Virus record (IMG/VR): IMGVR_UViG_3300044695_002763
Span: 1 to 52,227 of that record
Length of the DNA: 52,227 nt
Strand: one strand, 5' to 3'
Origin: a virus
Part shown: positions 7,055-41,770 of the stretch, one piece after another
How positions within the stretch are numbered: the first letter of the stretch is position 1
Layout of the letters: the number at the start of each line of letters is the position of its first letter
Position numbers and translations under genes: made by a program
Notes under the pieces: generated by a model
What the model saw: only the letters and a program-made list of their open reading frames with translations
Databases searched by the model: none
Told to the model about the DNA's origin: nothing

Positions 7055-7061
7055 TAATACT

Positions 7062-10793: not shown

Positions 10794-10795
10794 AA

Positions 10796-11657: not shown

Positions 11658-11767
11658 TGCACATCGCGGGCGGTAACGTTCTCGAGTTTAAAGAATTAAT
11701 GCAATCCGATATTGACGTTTTTTTGATTAAATTTGAGGTGTTCTATAAGCAACACCAAAATGGCTGA
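11639..11767 (+). CDS. Tail assembly chaperone, -1 frameshift extension (gpGT-like)
   Basis: After slippage at AAATTTA (11639-11645) the -1 frame adds 40 residues (REQVMHIAGG...YKQHQNG), making a fusion of about 257 aa. The extension is conserved in unit 2 at the amino acid level, and its stop overlaps the tape measure start (ATG 11760). In lambda, the T part recruits the tail tube to the tape-measure-bound chaperone. The independent reading that begins at 11546 is probably not used as a separate start. Confidence 0.75.
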   Translation, partial: KFREQVMHIAGGNVLEFKELMQSDIDVFLIKFEVFYKQHQNG

Positions 11768-14519
11768 AGTCTTAATCAAATATAAAGCCGACGCGGGCGA
11801 CCTCGAGGCGATTGTAAATAAGATAAACAAGGTTAACGACGATGTAGTTAAAAGCGCAACGGAGTCGAGTAAGCGGGTTGGTGATGAATTTAAAAAAATA
11901 GGAGCGACCGCAGTAAACGCTTTTGCTAACCAACAATTAGCGGGGGCGGTTAAAAACCTCAATACTCAAGTTGCTGGTCTTACAACAGGGTTAAGACTAA
12001 ACGTAGACGCTTTAAAAAAGTTTGATAGCGCAACAGATAATACCACCGATAGCTTAAAAGATTTCGACGAGGAAGTAAAAAAGACTAATAAAATATTAGT
12101 TCAATCGGCTCAAGACGTTGCAAAGTACGAAGATAGGCTACGCGAATTATCGGTCGCAGGGCAGCGCAACACAGACGAGTTCAAAGATATTGCGAAGGCG
12201 GTCGGCGAATATAAGTCGGCTATTATTGCAGCCGATAGGGCTGTTGATTTATACGCTAAGTCAACCGATGCCGCAACGGGTCGAATAGGCGAGCTTGAAG
12301 ATAAACTATACGACTTAGCTTTAGCTGGGAAAGCGAATACCAAAGAGTTTAACGACTTGGTAAAAGAGGTTGCAACGGTTAGGCGCGCTGTAATTGAAAC
12401 CGATGCGCAGGTCGATGCGCTTGCGCAACGCGGCGCTAAGTTAAAAGGCTTCGTTCAAAGCGTTGAATTAGTTGGCGTAGCTTTTCAAGCTGTCGAAGGC
12501 GCAGCCGCTTTAACGGGCAAAGAAAACGAAGAACTGCAAAAGACTTTAGTAAAGTTGCAGGCAATCATGGCTATAACCTCAGCGCTCGAACAAGGGCGCG
12601 TTATTATCATGGAGCAGCTTGCAGCTAAAACGGGTATCGCTGGTTTGGCAATGAAAGCCTATACGTTTGTTACCAACGGCGCTGCAACCGCTACTAAAAT
12701 TTGGCGCGGTTTGTTAGTGGCAAGTGGTATAGGTGCTGTTGTGGCAATACTTGGAACGCTTGCCTCTAAATTCTTGGATAACAAGGAAGCGACAAACGAA
12801 GCAGCCGAAGCAGCAAAGGAGTACCAAAAAGCTATTGACGACTTAAATAGAACGGCTGCGCAATCAGCAGTTAAAGCGGGTAACGCTCAAATAGAATTAT
12901 TACAAAAGCAAGGTAAAATAACCGAGGAACAGGCTAAACGCTTAATAGTTTTTAATGAATTGCAAACGGGCTTATCCGATGCCGCTGTTAGCGCTAAAGA
13001 CAAAGAAACCGAAGCGCTTAAAAGGCTTGAAGAACAAAAAGCCCTCGATATAAAAACATTTGGTAAAGTTACTAAAGCAACCCAAGAACAATTAGGCAAA
13101 GATTTACTCGCTATTGAAACCGAAAGGAGTAATAAAGAAAAAGAGTTACGAGCGCAAGCCGAAATAGAAATAATAAACATAAGTAACGAGCGAAAAGAAA
13201 AAGAAAAAGAAAACGCAAAGAAAGCCGCTGAAGACTTAGCCAAAGCTCGCGAAAACTTAGCTAACTTAGAACTGGATGCCCTACAAGCATCTTTAGATGA
13301 ACGCGAATCTATACTTAATGAAAGCAATAATAAAATTGCAGAACTTGAAAAGGCGTTTATTGATAGCAAGTTTAAGAAAGGAAGTGACGAAGAAATAAAA
13401 CTACAAAACGCAATACAATCTATTAAGGAAGACGCGACAAAGCAAATTGCAGCTATTGACCAAAAGGCTTTAGAAGAAAAGATTGCAAAAGAAAAGGAAG
13501 CCGCCGAAAAGATTGCCGAAGAACAAAGAGCCGCCGCCGAATCGTCAATAAATACCCAAATTAATTTAGTTAAGGAATTAGAAATTGAACTGGGTAGTTC
13601 TTTGGAGCGCCGCGTTGAGTTAATTAATTTAGAAGCCGACCAGCGTAAGTTGTCTGCTACAAATAGTATTAAAGACGAAAAGGAACGAGCAAGTGCAATC
13701 GAGTTAATCAATGCGGAAACTCAGCAAAAAATAAGGGATGAACAAAAGAAAACAACCGACCAAGCGGTCAATGATGCTTTCGAGATTGCCGATGCGGTTG
13801 CAAATACTTTAGGCGCTATTGTAGAATTACAGGGCGCACAATCACAGGCGCGCATCGATGAAATAAATAATACAGCAACTTTAGAACAGGAAGCGATTAA
13901 TAAGAGCTTAGAAAGCGAAGCCGATAAGCAGCGTAAACTCGATGCTTTACGCTTGCGCACAAGCCGACAAATAGCAGCCGAAAAGACAAAGCAGGCTAAA
14001 TCAGAAAGGGCGTTAAACGTGTTTAAGGCGGTAATTGATACCGCAGCCTCGATAACTAAAACGGGTGCGCAGCTCGGTTATCCTGCGGCTATTCCTTTTC
14101 AAGTTGCGGCGGGTGTTATCGGTGCTACTCAAATCGCTACCATATTAGCGCAGCCGTTACCTAAGTTTAAAAAAGGGGGTATCGTAGGGGGTCGAAGCCA
14201 CGACGCGGGCGGTACTATAATCGAAGCCGAGCGCGGTGAATTTGTAGTTAACCGCAACGCAGTAACGCGCCACCGTTCCGAACTCGACGCTTTAAACACA
14301 TCGAGCGCGGCGTTTAAGCGTTTAATAGATGAGCGATATGTACGCCCTGCTTTAAATTACTACATGGGCAAAAAGGAGCGCGCTATTAACGTCAATGCTT
14401 CATTAAACAGTAAAGGCATGGAGAAAGAAATTAAAGGCATGAGGCGCGACCTAAAGCGTAATAAAACGATTGTAAATATTAACGGAAATGATTCGCGGTA
14501 CGCATGGCATCTGAATTAA
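11760..14519 (+). CDS. Tape measure protein
   Basis: This is a 919-aa protein; ATG 11760 is chosen because it overlaps the frameshift extension stop and gives MAEVLIKYKADAG, shared with unit 2. Long Ala/Glu/Lys-rich coiled coils (about 60-240 and 390-730) flank a hydrophobic membrane-like section (about 285-340, GLLVASGIGAVVAILGTLAS). A Gly-rich end with PKFKKGGIVGG and an ERGEFVVNRNAV motif is typical of tape measures. It sets tail length and is ejected into the cell. The length implies a siphovirus tail of moderate size. The middle differs strongly from unit 2 while both ends are conserved. It overlaps the next gene by 16 bases. Confidence 0.92.
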   Translation: MAEVLIKYKADAGDLEAIVNKINKVNDDVVKSATESSKRVGDEFKKIGATAVNAFANQQLAGAVKNLNTQVAGLTTGLRLNVDALKKFDSATDNTTDSLKDFDEEVKKTNKILVQSAQDVAKYEDRLRELSVAGQRNTDEFKDIAKAVGEYKSAIIAADRAVDLYAKSTDAATGRIGELEDKLYDLALAGKANTKEFNDLVKEVATVRRAVIETDAQVDALAQRGAKLKGFVQSVELVGVAFQAVEGAAALTGKENEELQKTLVKLQAIMAITSALEQGRVIIMEQLAAKTGIAGLAMKAYTFVTNGAATATKIWRGLLVASGIGAVVAILGTLASKFLDNKEATNEAAEAAKEYQKAIDDLNRTAAQSAVKAGNAQIELLQKQGKITEEQAKRLIVFNELQTGLSDAAVSAKDKETEALKRLEEQKALDIKTFGKVTKATQEQLGKDLLAIETERSNKEKELRAQAEIEIINISNERKEKEKENAKKAAEDLAKARENLANLELDALQASLDERESILNESNNKIAELEKAFIDSKFKKGSDEEIKLQNAIQSIKEDATKQIAAIDQKALEEKIAKEKEAAEKIAEEQRAAAESSINTQINLVKELEIELGSSLERRVELINLEADQRKLSATNSIKDEKERASAIELINAETQQKIRDEQKKTTDQAVNDAFEIADAVANTLGAIVELQGAQSQARIDEINNTATLEQEAINKSLESEADKQRKLDALRLRTSRQIAAEKTKQAKSERALNVFKAVIDTAASITKTGAQLGYPAAIPFQVAAGVIGATQIATILAQPLPKFKKGGIVGGRSHDAGGTIIEAERGEFVVNRNAVTRHRSELDALNTSSAAFKRLIDERYVRPALNYYMGKKERAINVNASLNSKGMEKEIKGMRRDLKRNKTIVNINGNDSRYAWHLN

Positions 14520-16465
14520 AGTTTTTAATCGATAACCTCGATAGGGGGCAACCATTAAACCCCGAGGACTTTGGTATAACAATAAACGAGGACGAAACAA
14601 TAGGGGCGCGAATAGTTTCGTTTGATAATGAGCTAACGTTTGGCGGTGATGTGTTCGGCTACCTTTACGCTAAACTCGAAACCTCGGGATACTGCGAACT
14701 GGTTCGCGTAGAGGTGCAATACCTTTGCGAATCTAATGGCGTTTGGGAACGTTTAGTAGATGGTTATATAATTGCAACGGAGTCTAACTTTTTGCTCGAT
14801 AGGTGTCAGGTTAAGACAAAGGTTTACGACGAAACGTTTAGCACAAAGATTAACAATAACAAGTCAATACCATTTTCGCTACGCCTTACAACATCGAAGA
14901 ACGGTACGCCAATAACGCCACCAACTATTCGACGGCTCGATATATTCGACCCTGCGATGGGTACATGGTATCCTAATTTTACTTATGGGTATGGAGTTTA
15001 CGATGTGTTCGCGCATTTAGTAAACTGCATGAGCGACGGGCTGGTAGATTTTGCCTCTAACCTTTTTGATTATACCGACCCGACAAACGACATACCAGTA
15101 TACACGCAGGGCAATATGTTACGAACGCGCACCGATATTGAAATCTCGGCTACGTTTGAACAGTTGTATTTAACTTTAAAACAAAAGTTAAACCTCGGTA
15201 TGGGTTTCGAAAGGCAAGCAAACGGGCGACCTTTATTGCGGATTGAACCCGTTAGCTATTTCCAACAATCAACAGCGTCGGTTAATCTTTACGACCAGCC
15301 CGAAATCGAAATGAAGTTCGATGTATCGAGGCTTTACGCTTCGGTTAATTTTGGTTCGTCGCCTTATTTATTCCCGAACGAGTGCAACGGGGGCGACGGC
15401 TTTTGTTTATTTCCGCAACCAGTATTTCAGGGCTTTCGTGATGAATCTTTTGGCTTCGTTGGTGAGTGCAATACATCGAATGTATTAAACTTAAAAACGA
15501 GCGACGTAGTGTTCGACCATAACGTTATCGAAGATATATTAAGGTTTCAAAGTCAAGACCACGAATTAACCCCTATAATAATTCAAAGCGATTACCGTAG
15601 CCGATTTGCGCCTAATTCATTTAGTGCGCGGGTTTATAATCTAACGGGGCTAACGATTCCATTTTACAACCTTAACTATTCTAACGAGGGCGTTTCGAGT
15701 AATTGGTTAAATGGCTTTCCTAATTCTTTGCAAGGTTTCTTTAATCAAGGAGACCCATTGTTAACGCCGTTTTTAGCGCGTGTAATAAACGCACCTACGC
15801 TACCTTCATGGGAAATTATAAATACTACATCAACTTCGTATAGTGAATATAGCGGCGACTTTATCCCGTTTAATAATGAGATTATAGACACGGGAAATAA
15901 CTTTAACGTTCGAAGGTATCGCGTGCCGTTCTCGGGTATTTATACTTTTAACCTTTCTTTAGTTTCTTTACCAAGTGTAGGCAACAGAACTTTGATAGGA
16001 ATTATAAAACGTTTAGATGGTTTGGGCAATGTTCAACAAGAGGTACAAGGTACACCCGTGAGCGGTGGCATTGCATTGAACACAACCGCAGCCGCTACCT
16101 TTTATTGTAATGAAGGGGATTTAGTTGTAGCTGATATTACAGGCGCTTCGAGCGTTGGACCTCAAATCGAAACTATTCAAATAAACGTGCTTTCGTTTTT
16201 TGAAGGCGAAGGCACAAACTTTCAAAGCCCCGATTTACAGCCCGTAGATATTAACGACGTGCAAGCCTATCTATACAAGTTTAAGCGCCCGTTAAGCATG
16301 GCAGAGATAAACGCGATAACAAGCGAAACATCGAAGCCTATTTTATTAGGGCGCAAAGATGATAGCCTCGCGGTTACGCCTACCTACATTAAAAACATTC
16401 AAATAGAATCAGTAATGCGCAAGGGCGCACAATTCGAGCTACGTTCTAACAAACTACTTCCATGA
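14504..16465 (+). CDS. Distal tail/baseplate protein
   Basis: This is a 653-aa beta-rich protein with few Cys, directly after the tape measure, where siphophages encode distal tail and tail-associated hub proteins. The N-terminal region (about 1-120) reads like a beta-sandwich: GARIVSFDNELTFGGDVFGY. The C-terminal third contains a jelly-roll-like segment around YRVPFSGIYTFNLSL that resembles a C1q/TNF-like or carbohydrate-binding fold. No protease or lysozyme motif is visible. It overlaps both neighbours. Unit 2 copy (50131-52089) is one residue shorter, with clustered changes near residues 350-360. The exact role is inferred from position. Confidence 0.65.
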   Translation: MASELKFLIDNLDRGQPLNPEDFGITINEDETIGARIVSFDNELTFGGDVFGYLYAKLETSGYCELVRVEVQYLCESNGVWERLVDGYIIATESNFLLDRCQVKTKVYDETFSTKINNNKSIPFSLRLTTSKNGTPITPPTIRRLDIFDPAMGTWYPNFTYGYGVYDVFAHLVNCMSDGLVDFASNLFDYTDPTNDIPVYTQGNMLRTRTDIEISATFEQLYLTLKQKLNLGMGFERQANGRPLLRIEPVSYFQQSTASVNLYDQPEIEMKFDVSRLYASVNFGSSPYLFPNECNGGDGFCLFPQPVFQGFRDESFGFVGECNTSNVLNLKTSDVVFDHNVIEDILRFQSQDHELTPIIIQSDYRSRFAPNSFSARVYNLTGLTIPFYNLNYSNEGVSSNWLNGFPNSLQGFFNQGDPLLTPFLARVINAPTLPSWEIINTTSTSYSEYSGDFIPFNNEIIDTGNNFNVRRYRVPFSGIYTFNLSLVSLPSVGNRTLIGIIKRLDGLGNVQQEVQGTPVSGGIALNTTAAATFYCNEGDLVVADITGASSVGPQIETIQINVLSFFEGEGTNFQSPDLQPVDINDVQAYLYKFKRPLSMAEINAITSETSKPILLGRKDDSLAVTPTYIKNIQIESVMRKGAQFELRSNKLLP

Positions 16466-18108
16466 GTTACACATCCATACCAAATCAACCAATATTATTT
16501 AACAGCGTTTTACCCGAGCAATGTGAGGGCTGTAATAGTAATTTTGCGCAGCTTGCCGATTTTAATGACCAATTATTTTGGCAGCTCGAAGCGGGGCAAT
16601 GTGGCGAGGTTGAGTTCTTTGGCGAAACATTGGTCGAACCTTGGACACAGGACGGCAGCACGATTACGGGCGGTGGCACAAGCACAGGCGGCTACATTGC
16701 AAGCTACTTGCGTTATGATGTGGTGCAAAATTTTATCGTTACCATAACCGTAAGCGATATTGTAGGCGTGCTAAGGGTAACAATAAACGGCGGCTCGTTT
16801 CTCGATGTATCAACACAAGGCACACACACGCTATATTTAACAACCTCTGACTTAACAAGCAATGCAGTTTTAATAGGCTTTAGCAATGGCACGCAGCCCT
16901 TCGATGGTTCATTCATTATCGACAGCGTTGTGCCAGTTCCAAACGGCGGCTTATTCGCTGGCATTGTGGATGCCGAAACGCTTGCAGTTGTTCAAGTGTT
17001 AGACCCTGTTATTACAACGAGCCAACAATATTTAACGGCTGCAATTAATTTAAGCGATTACGATATTGAGGCGGGCTGCTATCGATTAGCGATTGCGGAC
17101 TATTGCGAGAATACTTGCGGGCAATACTTCATATACAATCCTTACTTTAATGGAGACCCTTTATGTATTGATTGCTTGCCTATCGGTTGGACTTCCGTTC
17201 CAACAGTAGGCTCGGATGATTGGGTCGTTGATGGTGGCGAAGCAACGATTAATTTAACCGCCTTAGGCAATTCGGCGAACCTTGTTTCAATTACTGAGCT
17301 TTGCGAGGATACGGATTACTATGTCGAAATAGAAGTCGAATCGATAAGCAATGCAAGATTGAGGTTTGCCGTTGATGGTATAGGCTACGGCTCTTTTATA
17401 ACTACGGCGGGAACGTATAGCTTTACAATTACTGTAACAAGTGGCGGCGCGGTTAGTTTAGCAGGCTCGCAACTTGGGGCTTCACTCGATGGGGATATAG
17501 TTGTTAAGCGTGTAACGGTTCGAGCCGATAAGAATTGGGCTAAGTACGATAAGTATAGCGACCTTATAAGCATTGGAGATTATTCGGACGATTGCAGATT
17601 TTTTAAGATAGAAGGGTGCAACGGCGAAAACCAATTTGGATTAGGTTTTTATGGCACTTCGTTTTTAGCTGGTATTCGATTAGAGGGGCGACGATTCCAA
17701 CCGCAATACGATACCGATACCGATTTATTTAGATATGCTTCGGGGCGTTGGCAGGCAAGTTATGTAGACCGCAAAAAGAAATTGAGCTATTATTTTGGGC
17801 GCTTGCCCGAATACGTTTTAGATTTTCTTTCGATTGTTTTCTACTTCGATAATTGTTACATAAACGGCGACTTAGTTTTCCCAGCCGATAATGAGTTCCC
17901 TACAATCGAATATGATAATGCAGACGATTTAGGCGCGTTAACGATAGACTTGTATAATAAGCGCGATAAGGTGCGTAAAACGGTTTGTGTTGGCGTGGAT
18001 GCTAATTGCCTACCATCGATATTAGATAACGACTCAGAGCCGTTTATATTAACGCAGGATAGCGAGCGTTTAATTACGCAAGATGTGATTAACTTATATC
18101 AAGAATAA
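16462..18108 (+). CDS. Tail protein with two beta-sandwich (CBM-like) domains, receptor-binding candidate
   Basis: This is a 548-aa protein that starts at ATGA with the previous stop. The N-terminal part is Cys-containing (EQCEGCNSNFAQLADFNDQLFWQ). Two similar beta-sandwich segments follow, about residues 75-155 (FIVTITVSDIVG...) and 265-350 (YYVEIEVESISNARLRFAV...), both ending in a DG-x-I-V/I-x-x-V strand. They look like carbohydrate-binding or Ig-like domains used by phages of Bacteroidota to touch host glycans. The C-terminus ends with a LTQDSERLITQD motif. Host recognition is an inference. The unit 2 homologue begins at 52086 and is cut by the window end. Confidence 0.6.
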   Translation: MSYTSIPNQPILFNSVLPEQCEGCNSNFAQLADFNDQLFWQLEAGQCGEVEFFGETLVEPWTQDGSTITGGGTSTGGYIASYLRYDVVQNFIVTITVSDIVGVLRVTINGGSFLDVSTQGTHTLYLTTSDLTSNAVLIGFSNGTQPFDGSFIIDSVVPVPNGGLFAGIVDAETLAVVQVLDPVITTSQQYLTAAINLSDYDIEAGCYRLAIADYCENTCGQYFIYNPYFNGDPLCIDCLPIGWTSVPTVGSDDWVVDGGEATINLTALGNSANLVSITELCEDTDYYVEIEVESISNARLRFAVDGIGYGSFITTAGTYSFTITVTSGGAVSLAGSQLGASLDGDIVVKRVTVRADKNWAKYDKYSDLISIGDYSDDCRFFKIEGCNGENQFGLGFYGTSFLAGIRLEGRRFQPQYDTDTDLFRYASGRWQASYVDRKKKLSYYFGRLPEYVLDFLSIVFYFDNCYINGDLVFPADNEFPTIEYDNADDLGALTIDLYNKRDKVRKTVCVGVDANCLPSILDNDSEPFILTQDSERLITQDVINLYQE

Positions 18109-24148: not shown

Positions 24149-24421
24149 ATGCCAATATACGAAGGTTATAACGTAACGGCATCCGACCGCGAGGGCAAGA
24201 AATACAAAGCCGTTGACGCTGAAGGAAACGAGGTGCATTTTGGCGCGTCGGGTTATCGAATAAAGGTAGGCACGGATGCGGGTAATAATTATTGCGCCCG
24301 TAGTAACGGCATCCCTTCGCCGCGTTTTTCTGCTAATTGGTGGGCGCGTCAACTATGGAGCTGCGAGGGTAATCGTTCGGTAAGCGATAAACCTTTTTTT
24401 GGTAAAATCGATTTACCTTAA
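24149..24421 (+). CDS. Small conserved protein (DUF5754-like pattern)
   Basis: This 90-aa protein contains VHFGASGYRIKVGT and YCARSNGI followed by a Trp-rich region (NWWARQLWSC). The pattern HFGxxGYxxxxGTxxGxxYCAR is reminiscent of small proteins of phages and large viruses placed in DUF5754, of unknown role. It follows the scaffold by two bases and is followed by a terminator, so it closes the head operon. Confidence 0.6.
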   Translation: MPIYEGYNVTASDREGKKYKAVDAEGNEVHFGASGYRIKVGTDAGNNYCARSNGIPSPRFSANWWARQLWSCEGNRSVSDKPFFGKIDLP

Positions 24422-24466
24422 TACCTTTGTAACGTTCATAACGTGATTAGTATTAGGGTAATTAGA

Positions 24467-24496
24467 AAGGGCTGGTTTCGCTTCCAGTCCTTTTTT
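24467..24496 (+). terminator. Intrinsic terminator closing the head operon
   Basis: Stem AAGGGCTGG/CCAGTCCTT (24467-24475/24484-24492; one G-T pair), loop TTTCGCTT, followed by six T. Confidence 0.85.
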
Positions 24497-24548
24497 ATGC
24501 TGTAAATTAAGCAGTTACAAAAAAAGTTTAAATAATTGTATGAAATAG

Positions 24549-24579
24549 TTTGCAGATTCAAATAATGTTTGTATGTTTG
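24549..24579 (+). promoter_or_regulatory. Bacteroidota-type promoter
   Basis: TTTG (24549-24552), 19-base spacer, TATGTTTG (24572-24579). The same boxes occur before 4394, 33982 and 39045, which suggests coordinated (early) expression of these small genes. Confidence 0.85.
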
Positions 24580-24607
24580 CAGAGTTAAACATTTAAACAT
24601 TCACACT

Positions 24608-24814
24608 ATGAACACAGCAAACCTAATAAACGAAAACAACGTAGCACAATTTAAGTGCAAAGTTTTAACGCTTGTATGCCCTGCATACGGAACGGCTAAC
24701 TTGTTAAACGAAATTGAAACTGCAATGAGTATGTTTCAATATGAAAACGAAAGCGTTGAAACAATTGTTTTCGATTACTGCTTTTCTTGGCATCAAGATA
24801 AATATTCGATATAA
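24608..24814 (+). CDS. 68-aa small protein with its own promoter and terminator
   Basis: The start at 24608 is preferred; the upstream in-frame sequence is promoter and leader. The protein (MNTANLINENNVAQFKC...) has three Cys and an acidic C-terminal half. It stands alone between a promoter (24549-24579) and a terminator (24839-24868) within the late region, but its promoter matches those of the early genes 4394 and 33982. It is therefore probably an early or constitutively made accessory protein. Function unknown. Confidence 0.65.
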   Translation: MNTANLINENNVAQFKCKVLTLVCPAYGTANLLNEIETAMSMFQYENESVETIVFDYCFSWHQDKYSI

Positions 24815-24838
24815 GTTTTAGCTTTAACCTAACCTTCG

Positions 24839-24867
24839 AGCCTACCTAACAAGTAGGCTTTTTTTTA
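24839..24867 (+). terminator. Intrinsic terminator
   Basis: AGCCTAC/GTAGGCT stem (24839-24845/24853-24859), loop CTAACAA, then a run of nine T. Confidence 0.9.
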
Positions 24868-24875
24868 TTTAATGT

Positions 24876-24904
24876 TTTGCGTTTTCAAAAAATTATTATA
24901 TTTG
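24876..24904 (+). promoter_or_regulatory. Promoter of the noncoding RNA region
   Basis: TTTG (24876-24879) and TATATTTG (24897-24904), spacer 17 bases. No coding frame follows for over 500 bases, so this promoter appears to serve an RNA. Confidence 0.7.
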
Positions 24905-24909
24905 CAACA

Positions 24910-24999
24910 GATAGTTGGGGGCTATCGTATAGAGCTTGGATATTACGTTTCGATATATCTGCCCTTAAATAGACCCCCCGCTATTTAGGGGCTTTTTTG
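24910..24999 (+). ncRNA. Attenuator-like small RNA (terminator with competing helix)
   Basis: The RNA begins with hairpin GATAG/CTATC (24910-24914/24922-24926), loop TTGGGGG. It ends with a terminator of 12 bp (24961-24972/24981-24992), loop ACCCCCCG, and T-run 24993-24998. GGGGGCTAT (24917-24925) can instead pair with ATAG-A-CCCCC (24970-24978), which would break both hairpins. The two loops can also kiss. This is either a 90-base small RNA or a switch that controls read-through into the RNA downstream. Confidence 0.65.
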
Positions 25000-25319
25000 T
25001 TCCTAACAGGCTGATGAACCGACCAGTTCAGCCGTGAGCATAGGCGAGGAATCGCAATCAAAAGCAGTCGTTAAAGAACTTATAAACTAAGGTATGCGTA
25101 GGTGCGCTGCAAACTCGAGGGGGGCAACACCGACCAAGTGCAAGGGGCTAAAGGCTCAAGTATACCGAGGGGGTTTGTTGAAATAGTTAGCGCGATTGAA
25201 AAGAAGGGACGAGCGGTTAACAACCTCAAATAAAAAAAAGGGGTACACGGGCAATGAATCTTTTAAGTACGATTAAAAATCGTTTAACTTCCTTGCACGG
25301 GAGAACCCCCTCGCTATGC
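25000..25319 (+). ncRNA. Large structured noncoding RNA candidate before the capsid gene
   Basis: This is a gene-free stretch with long-range pairings. GTGCAAGG (25138-25145) pairs with CCTTGCAC (25291-25298), and CGAGGGGGTT (25166-25175) pairs with AACCCCCTCG (25304-25313). Because the strands interleave, the two helices form a pseudoknot. Local hairpins are GGCTGA/TCAGCC (25009-25014/25028-25033), GCGA-GGAA-TCGC (25044-25055) and ACGAT/ATCGT (25269-25283). G-runs are frequent, unlike in the neighbouring genes. I cannot match it to GOLLD, ROOL, tmRNA, RNase P RNA or a group I intron. Its role could be in packaging, capsid expression or counter-defence; this is unknown. Confidence 0.6.
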
Positions 25320-25350
25320 TTTGAAATGAAAAAAACATTTCGTAAATTTA
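25320..25350 (+). promoter_or_regulatory. Promoter of the capsid gene
   Basis: TTTG (25320-25323), 19-base spacer, TAAATTTA (25343-25350; last base differs from TAnnTTTG). It lies directly after the structured RNA candidate and leads into the capsid leader. Confidence 0.65.
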
Positions 25351-25371
25351 CAGCGCTCAAATGACAAATTA

Positions 25372-25431
25372 TTTTTAGGCGTGAATGTTTGCCGCCTGTT
25401 AAGTGCAAACGTTAAATTTAAAACCTAAAAA
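25372..25431 (+). ncRNA. Pseudoknot leader of the capsid gene
   Basis: Hairpin AGGCG/CGCCT (25377-25381/25393-25397) carries GTTTGC (25387-25392) in the loop, which pairs exactly with GCAAAC (25405-25410). A competing outer helix TTTTTAGG/CCTAAAAA (25372-25379/25424-25431) shares AGG with the first hairpin. The layout repeats that of the leader at 18145-18195. It ends four bases before the capsid ATG, so it may tune mRNA stability or translation. Confidence 0.6.
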
Positions 25432-25435
25432 CAAA

Positions 25436-26482
25436 ATGTCAATTTCTCGCATTTTATCCGAATGCCCGAATGTGCAAATGAGCCTTTCGGAGCTTTTTAT
25501 CGAAGTAGGTCAGCGCGAACAGCTACCTTTCCTCGAGTTCCTTAATTCACCTGAAAACGTAAAGCTAATCCGTCAAGAGGTTTCGACTGGAAACGGCAAG
25601 CTAAAAACCGTTGAGGCTCGTTGGATTCAGCGTTTACCTGAAACAGAAGTAGAAGAAGGTGGTAACATCTTAACTTGTACGGCTACCAACACCTACGGCG
25701 ATAGCACCACTACGTACACGCTTGAAACGACCGACACGTATATCGCTGAACAATTGATTCAGGCTGATGCAATCGCCCGTCATTGTCAAGAAAACAGCCG
25801 TTACGTTCTCGAGTCTATCATGCGTTTAATGGACGTAATGGATAGAAAAGTAGCAAGCGCCGCAGCTACTCAAGCCGTTGCCTCTATCGGCAAATGGGGT
25901 ACTGAGGTTAGCGGTTACTACACCGTATCGGGCGACTGCTTGCGCATTGCAACACGTCAAACAGGCGGGCAAGCATTGAACGAGTTTGCTTTGGCTGACA
26001 TCCTTCAAGCTACGCGCATGGCTAACTACCCAGCTGCACCCGTTGTATTTGGTGGCGCTGAAATGCAGCGTTATGCTAATGCGGTGCAAGCTGGTTGCTG
26101 CACGCAATTCGGTATCGACTTGTTAGCGATTTCGCAGCAGAACGGTTTCGGATTCGCTTACGATGCACGTTTAGCAGCCGCTCAAGGTTCGCAGCTAAAG
26201 AACTTAGCAACGACCGCAGGCGCGATGCAATGGTTATCGTTCAATATGGCAGAATGGAACGCAGGTGTTACACCTGTGGCGGGTAGCAATTACAGCAAAA
26301 CAATTGCTTTTACTCCTGCGGGTTTGCCTGTTGATTTAACCATGAAAGACGATTGCGGTAATTTGTCAATCGTATTGACGCATACTGGTAAACTCGTTAC
26401 ATTACCTGACGATATTTACGAAGCAGGCGACAAATACGCAGGCGTAAATTACGTAAACTGTATTGAGATTGCAAACCCGTAG
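25436..26482 (+). CDS. Major capsid protein
   Basis: This 348-aa protein starts at ATG 25436, after its leader; an earlier start would begin inside the RNA structure. Evidence is context (after scaffold, before connectors), its own promoter and structured leader, and HK97-like composition. An N-terminal region with VEARWIQRLPETE is followed by a helix-rich section (ESIMRLMDVMDRKVASAAATQAV, spine-helix-like) and a beta/Ala-rich C-terminal part with VVFGGAEMQRYANAV. Fold assignment is inferred. A slippery AAACCCG followed by a 12-bp stem-loop ends the gene, so a longer minor form is likely. Confidence 0.8.
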   Translation: MSISRILSECPNVQMSLSELFIEVGQREQLPFLEFLNSPENVKLIRQEVSTGNGKLKTVEARWIQRLPETEVEEGGNILTCTATNTYGDSTTTYTLETTDTYIAEQLIQADAIARHCQENSRYVLESIMRLMDVMDRKVASAAATQAVASIGKWGTEVSGYYTVSGDCLRIATRQTGGQALNEFALADILQATRMANYPAAPVVFGGAEMQRYANAVQAGCCTQFGIDLLAISQQNGFGFAYDARLAAAQGSQLKNLATTAGAMQWLSFNMAEWNAGVTPVAGSNYSKTIAFTPAGLPVDLTMKDDCGNLSIVLTHTGKLVTLPDDIYEAGDKYAGVNYVNCIEIANP

Positions 26483-26562
26483 CCGCGTCAGTAGGTTTAT
26501 TATCGCAAGCCGATGAAGACCTATTGACGCAAAATGGATTTGATAATCTTGTAACTGAATAA
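26473..26562 (+). CDS. Capsid -1 frameshift extension (minor capsid form)
   Basis: The heptamer A AAC CCG (26473-26479) is in the capsid frame just before TAG (26480-26482). After a 5-base spacer comes a 12-bp stem (26485-26496/26519-26530, one G-T pair). The -1 frame is open for 27 codons (VAASVGLLSQADEDLLTQNG...) to TAA 26560-26562, where the terminator starts. The product would be about 375 aa. This is the layout of T7 gp10A/10B-type frameshifting. A base error in the sequence that hides a single longer gene is the alternative. Confidence 0.6.
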   Translation, partial: KPVAASVGLLSQADEDLLTQNGFDNLVTE

Positions 26563-26590
26563 GAGGGGTTTATTGCCCCTCTTTTTTTTT
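26562..26590 (+). terminator. Intrinsic terminator after the capsid gene
   Basis: AGAGGGG/CCCCTCT stem (26562-26568/26576-26582), loop TTTATTG, then nine T. It begins exactly at the stop of the frameshift extension. The T-run merges into the next promoter. Confidence 0.88.
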
Positions 26591-26597
26591 ATCTTTG
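26590..26597 (+). promoter_or_regulatory. TAnnTTTG element before the connector gene
   Basis: TATCTTTG lies 5 bases before ATG 26603. The upstream box falls in the terminator and is not clear. It would give a leaderless or nearly leaderless transcript. Confidence 0.45.
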
Positions 26598-34565: not shown

Positions 34566-35240
34566 ATGGCTTTAACAGCACCCGTAGGCGGAACGGCAAA
34601 CCGCCAAATCGCACCCGAGGGTAGTTACCCTGCGCGCTGCTATCAAATTATCGACCTCGGTACGACCGAACAAGGCGGTATTTATGCAGGCAAAAAACGC
34701 AAAGTTCAATTCCTATTCGAACTGCCAACCGAGAAAGCGGTATTCGATGAAAGCAAAGGCGAACAGCCGTACTACGTTCGCAGCATTTACACGCTATCGA
34801 TGAACGAAAAGGCTTTATTACGTCGCGATGTTTCGGCATGGCTCGGCAAAAAGTTAACTGATTCTGAAGCCTCAAAGCTCGATATTTTTAAGATGCTTGG
34901 GAAAACGTGCATGGTAAATATTGCGCACGTTACCAAAGGTGAAAACACCTATGCAAACATTATAAGTTTTGCGCCGCTTATGAAAGGCTACGAATGCCCC
35001 GCACCGATTAACGAGGCGTTTACCTACACCCCGACCGCGCACGAACAAGAAGTATTCGCAAAACTGCCCGAGTTTTTACAGGATAAGATTAAGGAATCGG
35101 ACGAATACAAAGCAATGACAACGGCAAGTTTTAAAAACGATTTTACACCTAAAACGCAGCCACCTCAGAACTTTGAAGACCTACCCGACATCGACGATAT
35201 TTTCGGACAAAAGGCGGCTAATGACTTACCGTGGGATTAA
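34566..35240 (+). CDS. Putative ssDNA-binding protein (unit 2)
   Basis: This is the second-unit homologue of the gene at 27-701, also 224 aa. I see only about eight amino acid changes, mostly conservative and in the linker after residue 155 (for example FEELPD to FEDLPD). The acidic tail ending NDLPWD is kept. The DNA carries many more silent changes than amino acid changes, which shows selection on the protein. Confidence 0.6.
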   Translation: MALTAPVGGTANRQIAPEGSYPARCYQIIDLGTTEQGGIYAGKKRKVQFLFELPTEKAVFDESKGEQPYYVRSIYTLSMNEKALLRRDVSAWLGKKLTDSEASKLDIFKMLGKTCMVNIAHVTKGENTYANIISFAPLMKGYECPAPINEAFTYTPTAHEQEVFAKLPEFLQDKIKESDEYKAMTTASFKNDFTPKTQPPQNFEDLPDIDDIFGQKAANDLPWD

Positions 35241-35248
35241 ATGATAAA

Positions 35249-35267
35249 GGGCGGCAAAGCGCCGCCC
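35249..35267 (+). terminator. Intergenic GC hairpin (unit 2)
   Basis: Identical GGGCGGC-AAAGC-GCCGCCC hairpin as at 710-728, kept despite divergence of the flanking bases. Confidence 0.5.
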
Positions 35268-35294
35268 TCTAACTTACCAAATAAATAAACATAC

Positions 35295-35966
35295 ATGAAC
35301 ACACTTGCAAAGGTACAAATACCAATCGAAAAAATATACCACGCGATAAATTCGCCTCAAACGTTAAACGCGCAATCGATAGTAGCGCGTAACACGGGCG
35401 GCGGCGAAGCGCTCTCGATTCAAAACGTAAGCGAATATACAGCAATGAACGCCGCTGTAAAAGACGTAAGCGATGCGGTTAAGGCAATCGAAGCAGCCCG
35501 TAAAGAGGTAACCACACCGCTCGAGCATTTCAAAAAGGAACTTATTAAGCTCGAAAAGGATGCCACAGCGCCGCTACTCGATTTTATCGAAGATGCTAAA
35601 AAGCGAATGGTAGAATATCACGAACGCCTCGAAGCCGAACAAGAAGCCGCCGAAGCGAAGCTAATAGCCGAAGCTGCTCAAAGCATCAAAGAAGCCGAAG
35701 CGGTTAGCGATGTAATCGCAGCGTTTACCGATAAGCTCTATGCCACCACAGTAGAGAATAGCCAAACGAAAAACATACGCAGCACCATTAAGGCGCGCGT
35801 TAACGGAGAGGTTAACTGGGTAAAGGTGCTTTCGGTTCAATTCGCATTTAACAACTTAAAGCCCGAAGATTTACTAAACGGCTTAGCCAAAGCAATGAAG
35901 GATTTAGGCGTTGATAGCATCGAAGGCATTGAGCTTTACGAACACAAAACCCAAGTAATCCGATGA
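35295..35966 (+). CDS. Coiled-coil phage protein (unit 2)
   Basis: This 223-aa homologue of 755-1426 has a few substitutions (for example EEKL to EAKL in the coiled coil, LPKAMKELGVDN to LAKAMKDLGVDS near the end). The start of the next gene here is different, marking the left edge of a swapped block. Confidence 0.55.
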   Translation: MNTLAKVQIPIEKIYHAINSPQTLNAQSIVARNTGGGEALSIQNVSEYTAMNAAVKDVSDAVKAIEAARKEVTTPLEHFKKELIKLEKDATAPLLDFIEDAKKRMVEYHERLEAEQEAAEAKLIAEAAQSIKEAEAVSDVIAAFTDKLYATTVENSQTKNIRSTIKARVNGEVNWVKVLSVQFAFNNLKPEDLLNGLAKAMKDLGVDSIEGIELYEHKTQVIR

Positions 35967-36010
35967 ACAATTACACCAATACAATAACAAACATTAAACA
36001 CTTAAAACCT

Positions 36011-36358
36011 ATGTACACTTTCACACAATTAACGCATAGTGAAATATGCGAACGAATCGAAACGGCACGCAAGCGCCACAAATTAACTAAAGCGGAGTTT
36101 AGCCGAATGGCTGGTTATACCTCATGCGCTCTAAACAAATGGCTAATTAATACAAGATTTAGCTCGGTATCTTATAACCGCGTAATGGATGTAATCAAAA
36201 AGCTCGATAATTCGCCCGAACAAATCGAAATTAAGTTTACCCCTAAGCCAGTTGAAAAGCAAACCTACGGCGTTTTAAGCATCGAAACTGCTATAAAAAT
36301 GCTAAAGGATGCAGGGTATAAGATTTCTAAACGAGTTGAAAAATGGGAGGAAATCTAA
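36011..36358 (+). CDS. Helix-turn-helix (XRE-like) regulator, unit 2 only
   Basis: This 115-aa protein is read from MYTFTQLTHSE; a 16-residue longer form from 35963 (ATGA overlap) is possible, but that segment looks like a leader. The helix-turn-helix runs about residues 12-45 (RIETARKRHKLTKAEFSRMAGYTS...LNKWL), typical of XRE/Cro-type DNA-binding proteins. The C-terminal part contains a second helical motif (IETAIKMLKDAGYKI). It replaces the unknown gene 1423-1818 of unit 1. A role in early-gene control or superinfection response is plausible. Confidence 0.75.
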   Translation: MYTFTQLTHSEICERIETARKRHKLTKAEFSRMAGYTSCALNKWLINTRFSSVSYNRVMDVIKKLDNSPEQIEIKFTPKPVEKQTYGVLSIETAIKMLKDAGYKISKRVEKWEEI

Positions 36359-36570
36359 TGCAAAACAAAATAACAGCCGTTGAATGGTTAGCCGTTCAAC
36401 TTGAAAAGTATTACGGAAATCAAAAAATTACAGATACCGAGGCGTTTATAACCGCCAAAGCAATGGAAGAACTGCAAATAATCGACGCGCACGATAGCGG
36501 ATACATTGACGGGCAAGGGCAAAAAAGTATATCAGCCGAACAATATTACACCGAAACCTATGGAGAATAG
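36358..36570 (+). CDS. Small YY-motif phage protein, paralogue A (unit 2)
   Basis: This 70-aa protein is read from ATG 36358, which overlaps the HTH stop (TAATG) and has a rare clear Shine-Dalgarno GGGAGG upstream. The C-terminal half (AFITAKAMEELQIIDAHDSGYIDGQG...) matches the unit 1 gene at 1815-2054, while the N-terminal half differs and begins TAVEWLAVQLEK. Function unknown. Confidence 0.65.
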   Translation: MQNKITAVEWLAVQLEKYYGNQKITDTEAFITAKAMEELQIIDAHDSGYIDGQGQKSISAEQYYTETYGE

Positions 36571-36769
36571 ACAAACAGCAGTTGAGTGGTATCATACAAA
36601 ATTAGCAGAGCCAACAACTCAAGCAAAAGATGTAAATACAATATTCCTATTAGCCAAAGCAATGGAGAAGGAGCAGATAGTTGATGCTTTTGATAATGGT
36701 GCTGAAGAATGGACACCGATTGAATATTCAGATGGGCAACATTACTACAATCACAATTTCGAATCATGA
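36560..36769 (+). CDS. Small YY-motif phage protein, paralogue B (unit 2)
   Basis: This 69-aa protein is read from ATG 36560. It is a diverged paralogue of the preceding gene: TAVEWYHTKLAEP, LLAKAMEKEQIVDAFDNG and YYNHNF line up with its neighbour. The tandem duplication exists only in unit 2. It overlaps both neighbours. Confidence 0.65.
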   Translation: MENRQTAVEWYHTKLAEPTTQAKDVNTIFLLAKAMEKEQIVDAFDNGAEEWTPIEYSDGQHYYNHNFES

Positions 36770-37347
36770 CACGCGAAGAATACATTAAACATCCAGCCAT
36801 AAGCGCAAGCCGTATAAAACGATTTTACACGGGCGACATAAGTTACGCGCAAACTGCGTTAGATGCAGGCGCGGCGTTCCATTTCGATTTACTTGAGCAG
36901 CCTTATGAAAGTATGCCACCAAACACGCAAAACGTTTATAATGCGATTCACGCGGTCGAAATGTTAGGCGAACTATTCGATAAATCGCATCACGAATACA
37001 TTACCCTAAACACGGTAACCGTTGGCGGCATAACGGTCGAAGGTAAAGGAATGATGGATTTATGCTGGCTTGAGCGCGGTATAATTGCCGACGTTAAAAC
37101 AACAAGCGCAAAGAATATAAAAGCCTTCGCCGCTGATATGGTAGCGCATTGTAACCATGTGCAAGCGGTTTGGTATTCGCTTTTGATGGGCTTTGACCCT
37201 CGGCAGTTTTACTATATAGGAGTACCGCCAAAGGTTAAAAAGTCGGGTAAGTTTAGCGACTTGTATTTGTACCGCCATAACGAGGATGAAATCGCAAGCG
37301 CAACGGATTTAATAATTAACTATTTGAACCATGAAGGAACGCGTTAA
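36766..37347 (+). CDS. PD-(D/E)XK exonuclease, RecE-like (unit 2)
   Basis: This 193-aa homologue of 2051-2632 keeps the catalytic residues (His39, Asp98, Asp109-x-Lys111, Gln133). Substitutions cluster near residues 25-35 (ISYAQTALDAGAAFHF). It has the same 17-base overlap with the next gene. Confidence 0.8.
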   Translation: MTREEYIKHPAISASRIKRFYTGDISYAQTALDAGAAFHFDLLEQPYESMPPNTQNVYNAIHAVEMLGELFDKSHHEYITLNTVTVGGITVEGKGMMDLCWLERGIIADVKTTSAKNIKAFAADMVAHCNHVQAVWYSLLMGFDPRQFYYIGVPPKVKKSGKFSDLYLYRHNEDEIASATDLIINYLNHEGTR

Positions 37348-37582
37348 ACAAACGAAATTTGATTACCTAAAGCTAATTAGCCAACTCGATAGGCTCATTA
37401 AATGGATGCCTGACACGGGTGTCGGGTATCAAAAAAAGTTAACCAAGTGCGCCGAGTTTTGGTGGCTGCATAAAGGAACCATACCAGCGAACACGATTGC
37501 AATACTTTTAAAAGTTGAAAGAACCGATTTAATAAACTTACTCAATGCGCAAATCATCGAAAGAGGCACTTACATACGCTAA
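37331..37582 (+). CDS. Small basic hypothetical protein (unit 2)
   Basis: This 83-aa homologue of 2616-2867 has two visible amino acid changes (METG to MPDTG region, PAST to PANT), against more silent changes. Confidence 0.65.
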   Translation: MKERVKQTKFDYLKLISQLDRLIKWMPDTGVGYQKKLTKCAEFWWLHKGTIPANTIAILLKVERTDLINLLNAQIIERGTYIR

Positions 37583-37808
37583 CGACCTCGGCGACCTAAC
37601 AGAGTTTATAGGACATACTTACAAAAACGTAGCTGCATATCTTTTATCTTGCGGCTTCGAATATTTAGAGTGCTGTTTTAAGTATCGTAAAGTTTTTAAC
37701 GACCACGAAAACAATCGAAGCATTTTAATAGACCTTTACGACGAAACAACCGAGCTAAAGGGGCGCGTTGAATACATGATAGTTTGTAATAGTATTTACA
37801 AACGATGA
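37545..37808 (+). CDS. Small hypothetical protein (unit 2)
   Basis: This 87-aa protein is identical to that of 2830-3093, although the DNA differs at silent positions. Strong conservation, unknown role. Confidence 0.68.
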   Translation: MRKSSKEALTYANDLGDLTEFIGHTYKNVAAYLLSCGFEYLECCFKYRKVFNDHENNRSILIDLYDETTELKGRVEYMIVCNSIYKR

Positions 37809-38197
37809 AAAGCCGCCAGCCACGCGAAAGCGATATTTATTCAGCCATTGCACGTTACATGAGTTTAAAGCACCCCGAAATACTTTTTAGGTTTGACTTT
37901 AGCGCAGGAACTAAAATGAGCATGGGGCAAGCAAGGGTACATAAAAGCATGAACCCGCAAAGAGGTTACCCCGATTTATTTATCGCTGCGCCGCGTGGAA
38001 ACTTTAGCGGTTTATTCATTGAAATCAAAAAAGGCGATTTTAAGCCGTTTAAACGCGATGGAACGCTAAAGCAAGATGAACACCTTACCGAACAATTTGA
38101 AGTCCTTACGCGGCTTAAAAACGCAGGTTTTGAGGCTTTGTTTTGCTCGGGCTTAGATGAGTGCATTGAAACGATTGAAAAGTATTTGAATAAATAA
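37805..38197 (+). CDS. VRR-NUC domain nuclease (unit 2)
   Basis: This 130-aa homologue of 3090-3482 has the catalytic set Asp57, Glu73-x-Lys75 intact. Changes such as HRGYPD to QRGYPD and GKFSGL to GNFSGL lie next to the active-site strands but not in them. Confidence 0.85.
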   Translation: MKSRQPRESDIYSAIARYMSLKHPEILFRFDFSAGTKMSMGQARVHKSMNPQRGYPDLFIAAPRGNFSGLFIEIKKGDFKPFKRDGTLKQDEHLTEQFEVLTRLKNAGFEALFCSGLDECIETIEKYLNK

Positions 38198-38211
38198 ATT
38201 TTGTAAATTTG
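38185..38211 (+). promoter_or_regulatory. Promoter of the replication gene (unit 2)
   Basis: TTTG (38185-38188), 15-base spacer, TAAATTTG (38204-38211), as in unit 1. Confidence 0.6.
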
Positions 38212-38215
38212 AAAC

Positions 38216-38327
38216 GTTTAGAGGTGGAATCCTAAACGAAACGAAATTAACTTATCGCCCTTTGGGTTTACGAGGCAAGGTGTATCCGAGCCGATTCCAC
38301 CGTAAATTTCAAGGGGCTTTCTATTTT
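38216..38327 (+). ncRNA. Structured leader RNA (unit 2, covarying copy)
   Basis: The fold is the same as at 3501-3615 with changed bases. GTTTAG/CTAAAC (38216-38221/38232-38237) replaces TTCAG/CTGAA. Loop GGTGGAAT (38223-38230) pairs with ATTCCACC (38294-38301). GGTTTAC pairs with GTAAATT (38265-38271/38302-38308). GCCCTTTG pairs with CAAGGGGC (38257-38264/38310-38317). The inner AGGCAAGG...CCGAGCC hairpin is unchanged. The T-run is weaker (TTTCTATTTT), which argues that termination may not be its only task. Confidence 0.8.
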
Positions 38328-38954
38328 ATGAAAAAATCGTTTGTACTTTATACGGATAACTGGGTAACATTAAAGCACCTTTCTAATGAGCAACTCGGAG
38401 AATTAATGCGAATGCTTTTTGAATATCAAATCGAAGGTGCAACGCCTGAACCGTCAAACCCTCTATTTATTGCTTTCGGGTTTATTCGCTCCGCTATGGA
38501 TAGAGATTTAGAAAAATGGAACGAACGAGCTGAACGTGCGAGGGTTAATGGTTTAAAAGGTGGACGACCAAAAGAAAACCAAGATGGTTTACAAGAAACC
38601 CAAAAAACCCAGTCGGTTAAATCAAAACCCAAAAAACCTGTTAATGTAAGTGTAAGTGTTAATGATAGTGTAAGTGTTAATGTAAATGCAAATGCTAACG
38701 CTAACTTTAAAAAGTGGAGCGAGCAAGATTTGATTGAAGCTATGACACCTTACAAGGATAGATACCCTAAAGAACTTTTAAACGCTTTCTTTAACTATTG
38801 GACTGAGCCGCTCGCAAACGGTAAAATACGTTTGACCTCTCAAGACGCTTGGGATACTGGTCGAAGGTTGGTAACATGGAATAAACGCGACACCGATAAA
38901 CAACCTAAAAACTCAACAGTAACACGCGCCTCGATGGGGCTAAAGATGCAATGA
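38328..38954 (+). CDS. Replication initiator/organiser-like protein (unit 2, other C-terminus)
   Basis: This is a 208-aa protein. The N-terminal domain aligns with 3616-4302 (KSFVLY, LSNEQLGELMRMLFEYQ, GGRPKEN). The linker is a Val/Asn/Ser repeat, and the C-terminal domain (about 125-195, LIEAMTPYKDRYPKELLNAFFNYWTEP) is unrelated to that of unit 1. The final residues STVTRASMGLKMQ are again shared. An exchange of the C-terminal domain suggests a different origin or helicase contact, although the DnaB proteins are nearly identical. Confidence 0.7.
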   Translation: MKKSFVLYTDNWVTLKHLSNEQLGELMRMLFEYQIEGATPEPSNPLFIAFGFIRSAMDRDLEKWNERAERARVNGLKGGRPKENQDGLQETQKTQSVKSKPKKPVNVSVSVNDSVSVNVNANANANFKKWSEQDLIEAMTPYKDRYPKELLNAFFNYWTEPLANGKIRLTSQDAWDTGRRLVTWNKRDTDKQPKNSTVTRASMGLKMQ

Positions 38955-38985
38955 CAAAAATATTTTTAAAATAATTTAGAAAAAG

Positions 38986-39016
38986 TTTGCAGAATCAAAA
39001 AAGAGTTGTATGTTTG
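38986..39016 (+). promoter_or_regulatory. Bacteroidota-type promoter (unit 2)
   Basis: TTTG (38986-38989), 19-base spacer, TATGTTTG (39009-39016), the same as 4335-4365. Confidence 0.85.
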
Positions 39017-39044
39017 CCTCATCAAACTCTTAAACACTTACACA

Positions 39045-39251
39045 ATGACAACTTCAATTTTAACTACAAAACTTCGCAACGGTGTAACAGTATTAGCAAA
39101 AGCTGATAGGTATGGCATAAACGCCGTAGGTTACTCAAACCTAACACAAGCTAACGCACGTCAAATTAAACTTTCTTTAGAGGGTATTGATTGCTCGGTA
39201 TATCGCACACCATGTAATATGTCGGTAACCTACATTAAAATAAATAACTAA
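39045..39251 (+). CDS. Small highly conserved early protein (unit 2)
   Basis: This 68-aa protein is identical to that of 4394-4600. Only about three bases differ over the gene, far fewer than elsewhere, so the RNA or DNA itself may also be constrained or recently exchanged. Confidence 0.7.
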   Translation: MTTSILTTKLRNGVTVLAKADRYGINAVGYSNLTQANARQIKLSLEGIDCSVYRTPCNMSVTYIKINN

Positions 39252-39258
39252 TCAAAAC

Positions 39259-39277
39259 GGGCGGTTAACAGCCGCCC
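39259..39277 (+). terminator. GC hairpin (unit 2)
   Basis: GGGCGG-TTAACAG-CCGCCC followed by AACTTTTT, as at 4608-4626. Confidence 0.55.
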
Positions 39278-39306
39278 AACTTTTTAAATCTTTAATATTT
39301 TATACT

Positions 39307-39498
39307 ATGGAACGCAAAACAGTCAAAACAGAATTTGAAATAACAACAACATCAGAGGGTAAAATATTTGCAAAAGTTGGCGATATAATAATTATTTCAA
39401 ACCGCGATTCAGAGCATTACAATGTACATAAAGTGAATGATACTAAAATATTTTCGCGGTGGATGCGTAAAGGATGGATTAACGCAAAATGTAACTAA
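39307..39498 (+). CDS. 63-aa small protein, unit 2 only
   Basis: This small basic protein (MERKTVKTEFEITTT...) is predicted beta-rich with a C-terminal SRWMRKGWINAKCN. It occupies the slot that holds an unrelated 47-aa gene in unit 1 (4655-4798). It ends directly before the helicase ATG. Function unknown. Confidence 0.6.
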   Translation: MERKTVKTEFEITTTSEGKIFAKVGDIIIISNRDSEHYNVHKVNDTKIFSRWMRKGWINAKCN

Positions 39499-40884: not shown

Positions 40885-40895
40885 TTTTTAATTTT

Positions 40896-41756: not shown

Positions 41757-41770
41757 ATTTTGTTTAAAAC

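What the first reader, a model, noticed from the sequence alone, without database searches (positions are those of the whole stretch)
26473..26562. Programmed -1 frameshift at the end of the major capsid gene
A AAC CCG is in frame directly before the TAG stop. A 5-base spacer and a 12-bp stem-loop (26485-26530) follow. The -1 frame is open for 27 sensible codons and ends exactly at the terminator. The arrangement mirrors phage T7 10A/10B, predicting a minor capsid form of about 375 aa whose extra tail might present a decoration or binding peptide.
Basis: partly seen in the sequence, partly recalled or inferred. Interest (0 to 1): 0.75.

Follow-up and report, generated by a model that had tools for sequence, protein, structure and literature searches.

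The report
Frameshift-made long form of phage capsid
In a family of uncultured phages of probable Bacteroidota hosts, the gene for the main shell protein carries a conserved RNA signal that should make some ribosomes slip back one base at its very end and add a 27-residue tail to a minority of shell subunits, as in phage T7 but with a different slip site and a different tail.

Summary
A_AAC_CCG (26473-26479) sits in frame before the TAG of the major capsid gene, a stable hairpin (26485-26530) follows after 5 nt, and the -1 frame is open for 27 codons up to the terminator. Of 118 distinct IMG/VR capsid-gene ends, 97 keep the extension and 94 of those keep the heptamer; of the 21 without it only 2-3 have the heptamer, and most encode the same residues with non-slippery codons (Fisher p about 2e-15). 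The extension frame evolves as protein (dN/dS 0.20, against 1.0 and 1.8 in the other frames). The hairpin is kept by compensatory changes and is deeper than synonymous recodings predict. Slip-to-hairpin distance stays 5-6 nt even when the stop codon moves. Sequencing error, readthrough and independent initiation are excluded or unlikely. Best explanation: a programmed -1 ribosomal frameshift making a 375-aa minor capsid form. Such capsid proteins are known (T7, T3, A2, A118/A500; +1 in PSA), so this is a new, independently evolved member. Unusual: the Asn-Pro slip site, repeated gain or loss of the whole cassette, and the extension's resemblance to the C-terminus of the phage's tail protein. 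Virion incorporation and function are untested.

The parts
25436..26482 (+). Major capsid protein gene, 0 frame (348 aa, stop TAG)
   Evidence: ORF. No PHROG/Pfam/PDB sequence match. Gene order portal - MuF-like - scaffold candidate - this - phrog_8189-like, matching Parabacteroides phage PDS1 where the annotated MCP lies directly before phrog_8189. A low-confidence model finds HK97-type capsids first in the viral structure library.
26473..26479 (+). Slippery heptamer A_AAC_CCG (re-pairs as AAA CCC in the -1 frame)
   Evidence: Direct reading; A_AAC_CC[G/A] in 94 of 97 extension-bearing relatives, 2-3 of 21 without.
26480..26482 (+). 0-frame stop codon TAG; first bases of the 5-nt spacer 26480-26484
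   Evidence: Direct reading. The stop is one or two codons further down in some relatives while the distance from slip site to stem stays 5-6 nt.
26485..26530 (+). Stimulatory hairpin (14 + 6 bp)
   Evidence: z -5.9; covariation on 38 distinct sequences; deeper than synonymous recodings.
26479..26562 (+). -1 frame extension, 27 codons VAASVGLLSQADEDLLTQNGFDNLVTE, then TAA
   Evidence: dN/dS 0.20 in this frame, 1.02 and 1.85 in the other two, 57 distinct sequences.
26561..26590 (+). Intrinsic terminator at the end of the extension
18037..18105 (+). C-terminus EPFILTQDSERLITQDVINLYQE of the 548-aa tail-region protein (16462-18108), which resembles the extension
   Evidence: Tail protein found in all 34 relatives searched; this terminus read in 28 of the 30 loci fetched; hhalign with the extension profile p = 1.3e-4.

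Best explanation
This is a programmed -1 ribosomal frameshift at the last two sense codons of the major capsid gene. Ribosomes reach A_AAC_CCG with the base of a strong hairpin 5 nt ahead. In a minority of passages tRNA-Asn and tRNA-Pro slip back one base (AAC to AAA, CCG to CCC), the stop codon is missed, and 27 more codons are read to a TAA at the terminator. The phage thus makes mostly the 348-aa capsid protein and some 375-aa protein with a C-terminal LLSQ...LLTQ...NLxTE peptide, most likely built into the capsid as a minor form with the peptide exposed. Shown by sequence: heptamer, hairpin, coding constraint, covariation, co-occurrence. Inferred: that slippage occurs, its rate, tandem slippage, incorporation and exposure.
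For: 97 of 118 distinct relatives have the extension, 94 of these the in-frame A_AAC_CC[G/A]. The final Val/Ala-Asn-Pro codons are GTA/GCA AAC CCG/CCA there, against GTT AAC CCT, GTA AAT CCT, GTT AAT CCA and similar in most relatives without the extension; from MCP codon usage (GTA 0.31, AAC 0.71, CCR 0.46) about 10% would match by chance, as the extension-less group does (Fisher p 2e-15). dN/dS is 0.20 in the -1 frame, 1.02 and 1.85 in the others. Stem: four basal pairs form in 37-38 of 38 distinct sequences with 4-10 double changes each; covariation score 0.383 against 0.217 shuffled (0/500) and at most 0.205 when slid; RNAalifold finds the same stem unaided. Slip-to-stem distance is constant at 5 nt (6 in one clade) even when the 0-frame stop moves a codon downstream (TCATAG, GCATAG). 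The hairpin is deeper than all 200 synonymous recodings in 13 of 20 sequences. In 52 of 97 sequences a -1-frame stop lies within 5 codons upstream of the first post-shift codon, confining the shift to this site. On an MCP-gene tree the extension changes state at least 9-10 times and the heptamer goes with it in 5-7 of 9 independent pairs, never against.
Against: No protein or reporter data. CCC is not among the classic strong -1 re-pairing triplets (own knowledge). In three sequences (L141, L145, L155) the codon before CCG is GTC, so tandem slippage is not possible there, and in L119 the site at the right distance is GCC_CCG. L019 and L064 have the heptamer but no extension. The MCP has no family-level match, so its identity rests on synteny and weak fold matches.
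Confidence: 0.9

Rival explanations
1. The shift is a single-tRNA slip: only tRNA-Pro re-pairs from CCG/CCA to CCC while it sits in the P site next to the stop codon, and the AAA part is not needed.
For: L141, L145, L155 keep extension and hairpin with C_GTC_CCG_TAA, and L119 has GCC_CCG_TAA at the 5-nt distance. C4-C6 of the heptamer are invariant in 38 of 38 aligned sequences. E. coli tRNA-Pro(UGG) is described as shift-prone on CCC-CG, in the + direction (PMC4519876).
Against: 94 of 97 keep the upstream A_AA even though Val could be GTT and Asn AAT. Seven distinct sequences have a sense codon (TCA, GCA, TCT), not a stop, after CCG.
Confidence: 0.25
2. Sequencing or assembly error: in the real genome the extension is in frame with the capsid gene.
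For: None beyond the fact that the window is a metagenomic assembly, and a joined one.
Against: 97 distinct sequences, with 67 first-scan records from 55 metagenomes, all out of frame by -1. Of the 98 contigs that encode the tail motif, those read were either already in the set or carry it in the -1 frame behind this gene; no in-frame fusion was seen.
Confidence: 0.01
3. The extension is a small separate gene translated by its own initiation, coupled to termination of the capsid gene.
For: Termination-reinitiation is common in phage operons (own knowledge), and the frames overlap.
Against: 64 of 97 have no ATG, GTG or TTG in the first 8 codons of the extension, and only 20 have ATG. Heptamer conservation and fixed spacing to the stem are not explained.
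Confidence: 0.03
4. The hairpin acts at the mRNA 3' end (stability or processing), and any frameshifting or extension is incidental.
For: The stem lies just before the terminator and is strongly conserved.
Against: dN/dS 0.20 in exactly one frame, and the linked gain or loss of heptamer and extension, would have no reason.
Confidence: 0.03

Closest known systems
Phage T7 gene 10 (capsid proteins 10A/10B) and phage T3 gene 10
   Same: -1 frameshift at the 3' end of the major coat gene gives two capsid proteins from one gene (review PMC5009743).
   Different: T7 shifts in the context G_GU and depends on a sequence in the terminator over 200 nt downstream; here A_AAC_CC[G/A] with a hairpin 5 nt away. 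The T3 extension is Ig-like, the T7 one is not; here it is only 27 residues with a repeated LLxQ motif.
Lactobacillus phage A2 major head protein
   Same: -1 frameshift in the transcript of the major head protein makes a second, essential capsid component (Garcia et al. 2004, as cited in PMC5009743; the paper itself was not held).
   Different: In A2 the extension is an Ig-like domain; here it is much shorter and has no such match. Different phage group.
Listeria phages A118, A500 (-1) and PSA (+1) coat proteins
   Same: Frameshift-extended coat protein; PSA shifts on a proline codon just before a pseudoknot.
   Different: PSA shifts +1 on CCC; here -1 onto CCC from CCG/CCA, before a plain hairpin. 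Different hosts.
Tail chaperone gpG/gpGT frameshift (lambda and many tailed phages)
   Same: Conserved -1 shift giving short and long forms in a phage structural operon (PMC4493119).
   Different: Different gene; the long form there is an assembly chaperone.

Membership tests
Programmed -1 ribosomal frameshift site | Slippery X_XXY_YYZ-type sequence in the 0 frame, conserved in relatives | tested here: met
   A_AAC_CC[G/A] in 94 of 97 extension bearers; three use C_GTC_CCG instead.
Programmed -1 ribosomal frameshift site | Stimulatory RNA structure a few nucleotides (about 5-9) downstream, supported by covariation | tested here: met
   distance 5 (6) nt.
Programmed -1 ribosomal frameshift site | Overlapping -1 ORF under protein-level selection | tested here: met
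   dN/dS 0.20 against 1.02 and 1.85 in the other frames.
Programmed -1 ribosomal frameshift site | Measured frameshift product | not testable with these tools
   No protein or reporter data for this uncultured phage.
Frameshift-extended major capsid protein (T7 10B / A2 kind) | Shift lies at the 3' end of the major capsid gene | tested here: inconclusive
   Position is shown. MCP identity rests on synteny with PDS1, portal relatives and weak fold hits to HK97 capsids (best E 0.003 from a model of pLDDT 37); no sequence family match.
Frameshift-extended major capsid protein (T7 10B / A2 kind) | Extended form is incorporated in virions | not testable with these tools
   Needs virions.
Homologues of a described capsid protein with frameshift extension (T7 gene 10 and others) | Sequence homology of the capsid protein | tested here: not met
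   tblastn of the MCP against 50,697 annotated phage records finds no match at E 0.01, and no PHROG or Pfam family matches.

The most novel reading that the evidence does not exclude
The frameshift places on a minority of capsid subunits the same short C-terminal adhesion or docking module (LLxQ-x4-LLTQ-xxx-NLxxQ/E) that ends the phage's own tail-region protein. One peptide would then be displayed in two places on the virion, and dosed on the head by a recoding cassette that lineages repeatedly gain and lose.
Probability: 0.25. Interest if true: 0.65.

Novelty: new member of a known kind. Interest (0 to 1): 0.5.

Why it matters
It adds an independently evolved case, in uncultured phages of probable Bacteroidota hosts, to the short list of capsid genes with a programmed frameshift. 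More than one hundred natural variants with and without the cassette show which parts move together. The Asn-Pro slip site re-pairing onto CCC, with natural variants that drop the upstream codon, makes the question of tandem versus single-tRNA slippage directly testable. If the peptide is displayed, it would show what a minor capsid form contributes to the virion surface.

Tried and rejected
Independent initiation, sequencing error, a +1 shift (the +1 frame is not conserved, dN/dS 1.85) and stop readthrough (the 0 frame holds about 5 stops per sequence) were rejected. Transcriptional slippage was judged unlikely because the A3 and C3 runs are too short (own knowledge). ColabFold with 13 and 40 close relatives gave pLDDT 32 and 37, too poor to place the C-terminus. 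No relatives were found in genome contigs or in INPHARED phages. hhalign of the MCP against the Polaribacter P12002L and PDS1 capsid proteins was not significant (pairwise BLASTP with PDS1 E 0.045). A first motif pattern was mis-specified and found nothing.

Full report
What is in the sequence. The window is a virus record of 52,227 bases. It holds one and a half genome units of two closely related ~34.5-kb phages, so the genes at 27-18,100 recur at 34,566-52,089, but the capsid gene occurs once. The MCP ORF runs from ATG 25436 to TAG 26482 (348 aa). The last codons are GCA AAC CCG TAG, so A_AAC_CCG is in frame at 26473-26479. After five bases a hairpin spans 26485-26530 (-29.8 kcal/mol, z -5.9, 0 of 200 shuffles). 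The -1 frame then reads VAASVGLLSQADEDLLTQNGFDNLVTE (27 codons) to a TAA at 26560, where the intrinsic terminator starts.

Relatives. Scans of IMG/VR gave 118 distinct capsid-gene ends. In 97 the -1 frame is open and encodes a diverged version of the same peptide (for example VIGSVGLLSQADEDLLTQDGLDNLTTQ, VIGLADLITQNDLELLTQDGIDNLITE, ITSSQNLLSEGSDDLLSEGSDNLLTQ). In 94 of these A_AAC_CCG or A_AAC_CCA is kept. The 67 extension-bearing records of the first scan come from 55 metagenomes. A pattern scan for the tail motif found 98 contigs; all of the 80 read that were not already in the set have the motif behind this capsid gene in the -1 frame (one contig starts inside the extension), and no in-frame fusion was seen. 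A sequencing error is therefore excluded.

The slip site is selected. Twenty-one distinct relatives lack the extension. Most still end the capsid in Ile-Val-Asn-Pro, but with codons that do not slip: GTT AAC CCT, GTA AAT CCT, GTT AAT CCA. By the codon usage of these genes about 10% would show the heptamer by chance; 2-3 of 21 do, against 94 of 97 with extension (Fisher p 2e-15). On a tree of 114 capsid genes built without the 3' end, presence of the extension needs at least 9-10 changes, and the heptamer changes with it in 5-7 of 9 independent pairs and never against it (sign test p about 0.03). Slip site, hairpin and extension behave as a cassette between the capsid stop and the terminator.

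The extension is protein. Over 57 distinct 27-codon sequences dN/dS is 0.20 in the -1 frame and 1.02 and 1.85 in the other two; the 0 frame holds about five stops per sequence. In 52 of 97 sequences a -1-frame stop lies within five codons upstream, so there the change of frame must happen at the slip site. There is no conserved start codon.

The hairpin is RNA. On 38 distinct sequences the basal pairs (columns 14-57, 15-56, 16-55, 17-54) form in 37-38 of 38, with 10, 9, 4 and 8 double changes: GCGTC/GACGC, GGGTC/GACCC, GGGTT/AACCC, GCACC/GGTGC, GCTCC/GGAGC, GCTC/GAGC, GCCC/GGGT. The covariation score is 0.383 against 0.217 in shuffles (0 of 500) and 0.205 at best when slid; RNAalifold finds the same stem. 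The upper stem is less uniform between clades. The hairpin is also stronger than recodings that keep the peptide, with 0 of 200 as stable in 13 of 20 sequences. The distance from CCC[G/A] to the stem is 5 nt (6 in one clade) even when the stop codon lies one codon later (TCATAG, GCATAG, TCTTAG) or when extra codons were inserted (L119, L141, L145, L155). Spacing is thus tied to the slip site, not to the stop.

How it works. The best reading is tandem slippage of tRNA-Asn and tRNA-Pro from AAC_CCG to AAA_CCC, driven by the hairpin. Three sequences with C_GTC_CCG, and L119 with GCC_CCG, suggest that tRNA-Pro alone can do it, perhaps less well; this is a real rival for the mechanism. tRNA-Pro(UGG) with cmo5U34 reads all four proline codons and is known to slip, though the published work is on + shifts (PMC4519876). 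The long form would be 375 aa. Its rate and its presence in virions are not known.

Is this the major capsid gene? No PHROG, Pfam or PDB sequence match exists. The gene order is portal (phrog_7376, E 3.5e-22), MuF-like, a coiled-coil scaffold candidate, this gene, then a protein that matches phrog_8189 (E 5e-5). Parabacteroides phage PDS1 has portal, capsid-associated protein, annotated major capsid protein, then phrog_8189. The portal's only relatives in INPHARED are phages of Polaribacter, Parabacteroides and Bacteroides. A poor model (pLDDT 37) still has two HK97-type capsid proteins as its best two hits in the viral structure library, E 0.003 and 0.006. I take the assignment as likely, about 0.93.

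What the extension may do. The 548-aa tail-region protein (16462-18108) was found in all 34 relatives searched, and in 28 of the 30 loci fetched it ends in a version of EPFILxQDxxRLxTQNxINLYQE. The extension profile matches it with hhalign p 1.3e-4. Among 1077 ORFs of the window the extension is the best non-self hit of the tail profile (E 0.07); in the reverse search one chance ORF ranks above the tail protein (E 0.8). This is suggestive, not proof of homology. A shared docking or adhesion peptide is the most interesting reading not excluded.

Comparison. Frameshift-extended coat proteins are known in T7 and T3, Lactobacillus phage A2, Listeria A118 and A500 (-1) and PSA (+1) (PMC5009743). 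This is the same kind of device, evolved separately, with an unusual slip site, a plain hairpin that is itself the coding sequence, and a short unrelated extension. In the papers searched I found no report of such a capsid frameshift in phages of Bacteroidota, but the library is incomplete.

Noticed in passing
27-18100 and 34566-52089: The record holds one and a half units of two closely related phages joined end to end, with a few swapped genes (for example a DNA methyltransferase-like gene at 43292-44323 in place of the gene at 7770-8600, and a cytosine methyltransferase-like gene at 40881-41756).
   Followed up: partly
10769-11657 and 46453-47341: Two overlapping ORFs (96 and 220 aa) directly before the tape-measure gene, laid out like tail chaperones G/GT. 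The overlap, with A_AAA_AAT in frame, is conserved in both units; the second ORF lies in the +1 frame, so a -1 shift at A_AAA_AAT would not reach it.
   Followed up: no
16462-18108: This 548-aa tail-region protein keeps the C-terminus EPFILxQDxxRLxTQNxINLYQE down to 43% overall identity, whether or not the phage has the capsid extension.
   Followed up: partly
26590-26597: TATCTTTG right after the capsid terminator fits the Bacteroidota -7 promoter consensus TAnnTTTG (own knowledge); several relatives keep TATCTTTGT there.
   Followed up: no
L072 and L074: Capsid proteins 99% identical, one with and one without slip site, hairpin and extension: a near-isogenic natural pair for experiments.
   Followed up: no
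24421-25436: About 1 kb with little clear coding capacity between the scaffold region and the capsid start.
   Followed up: no
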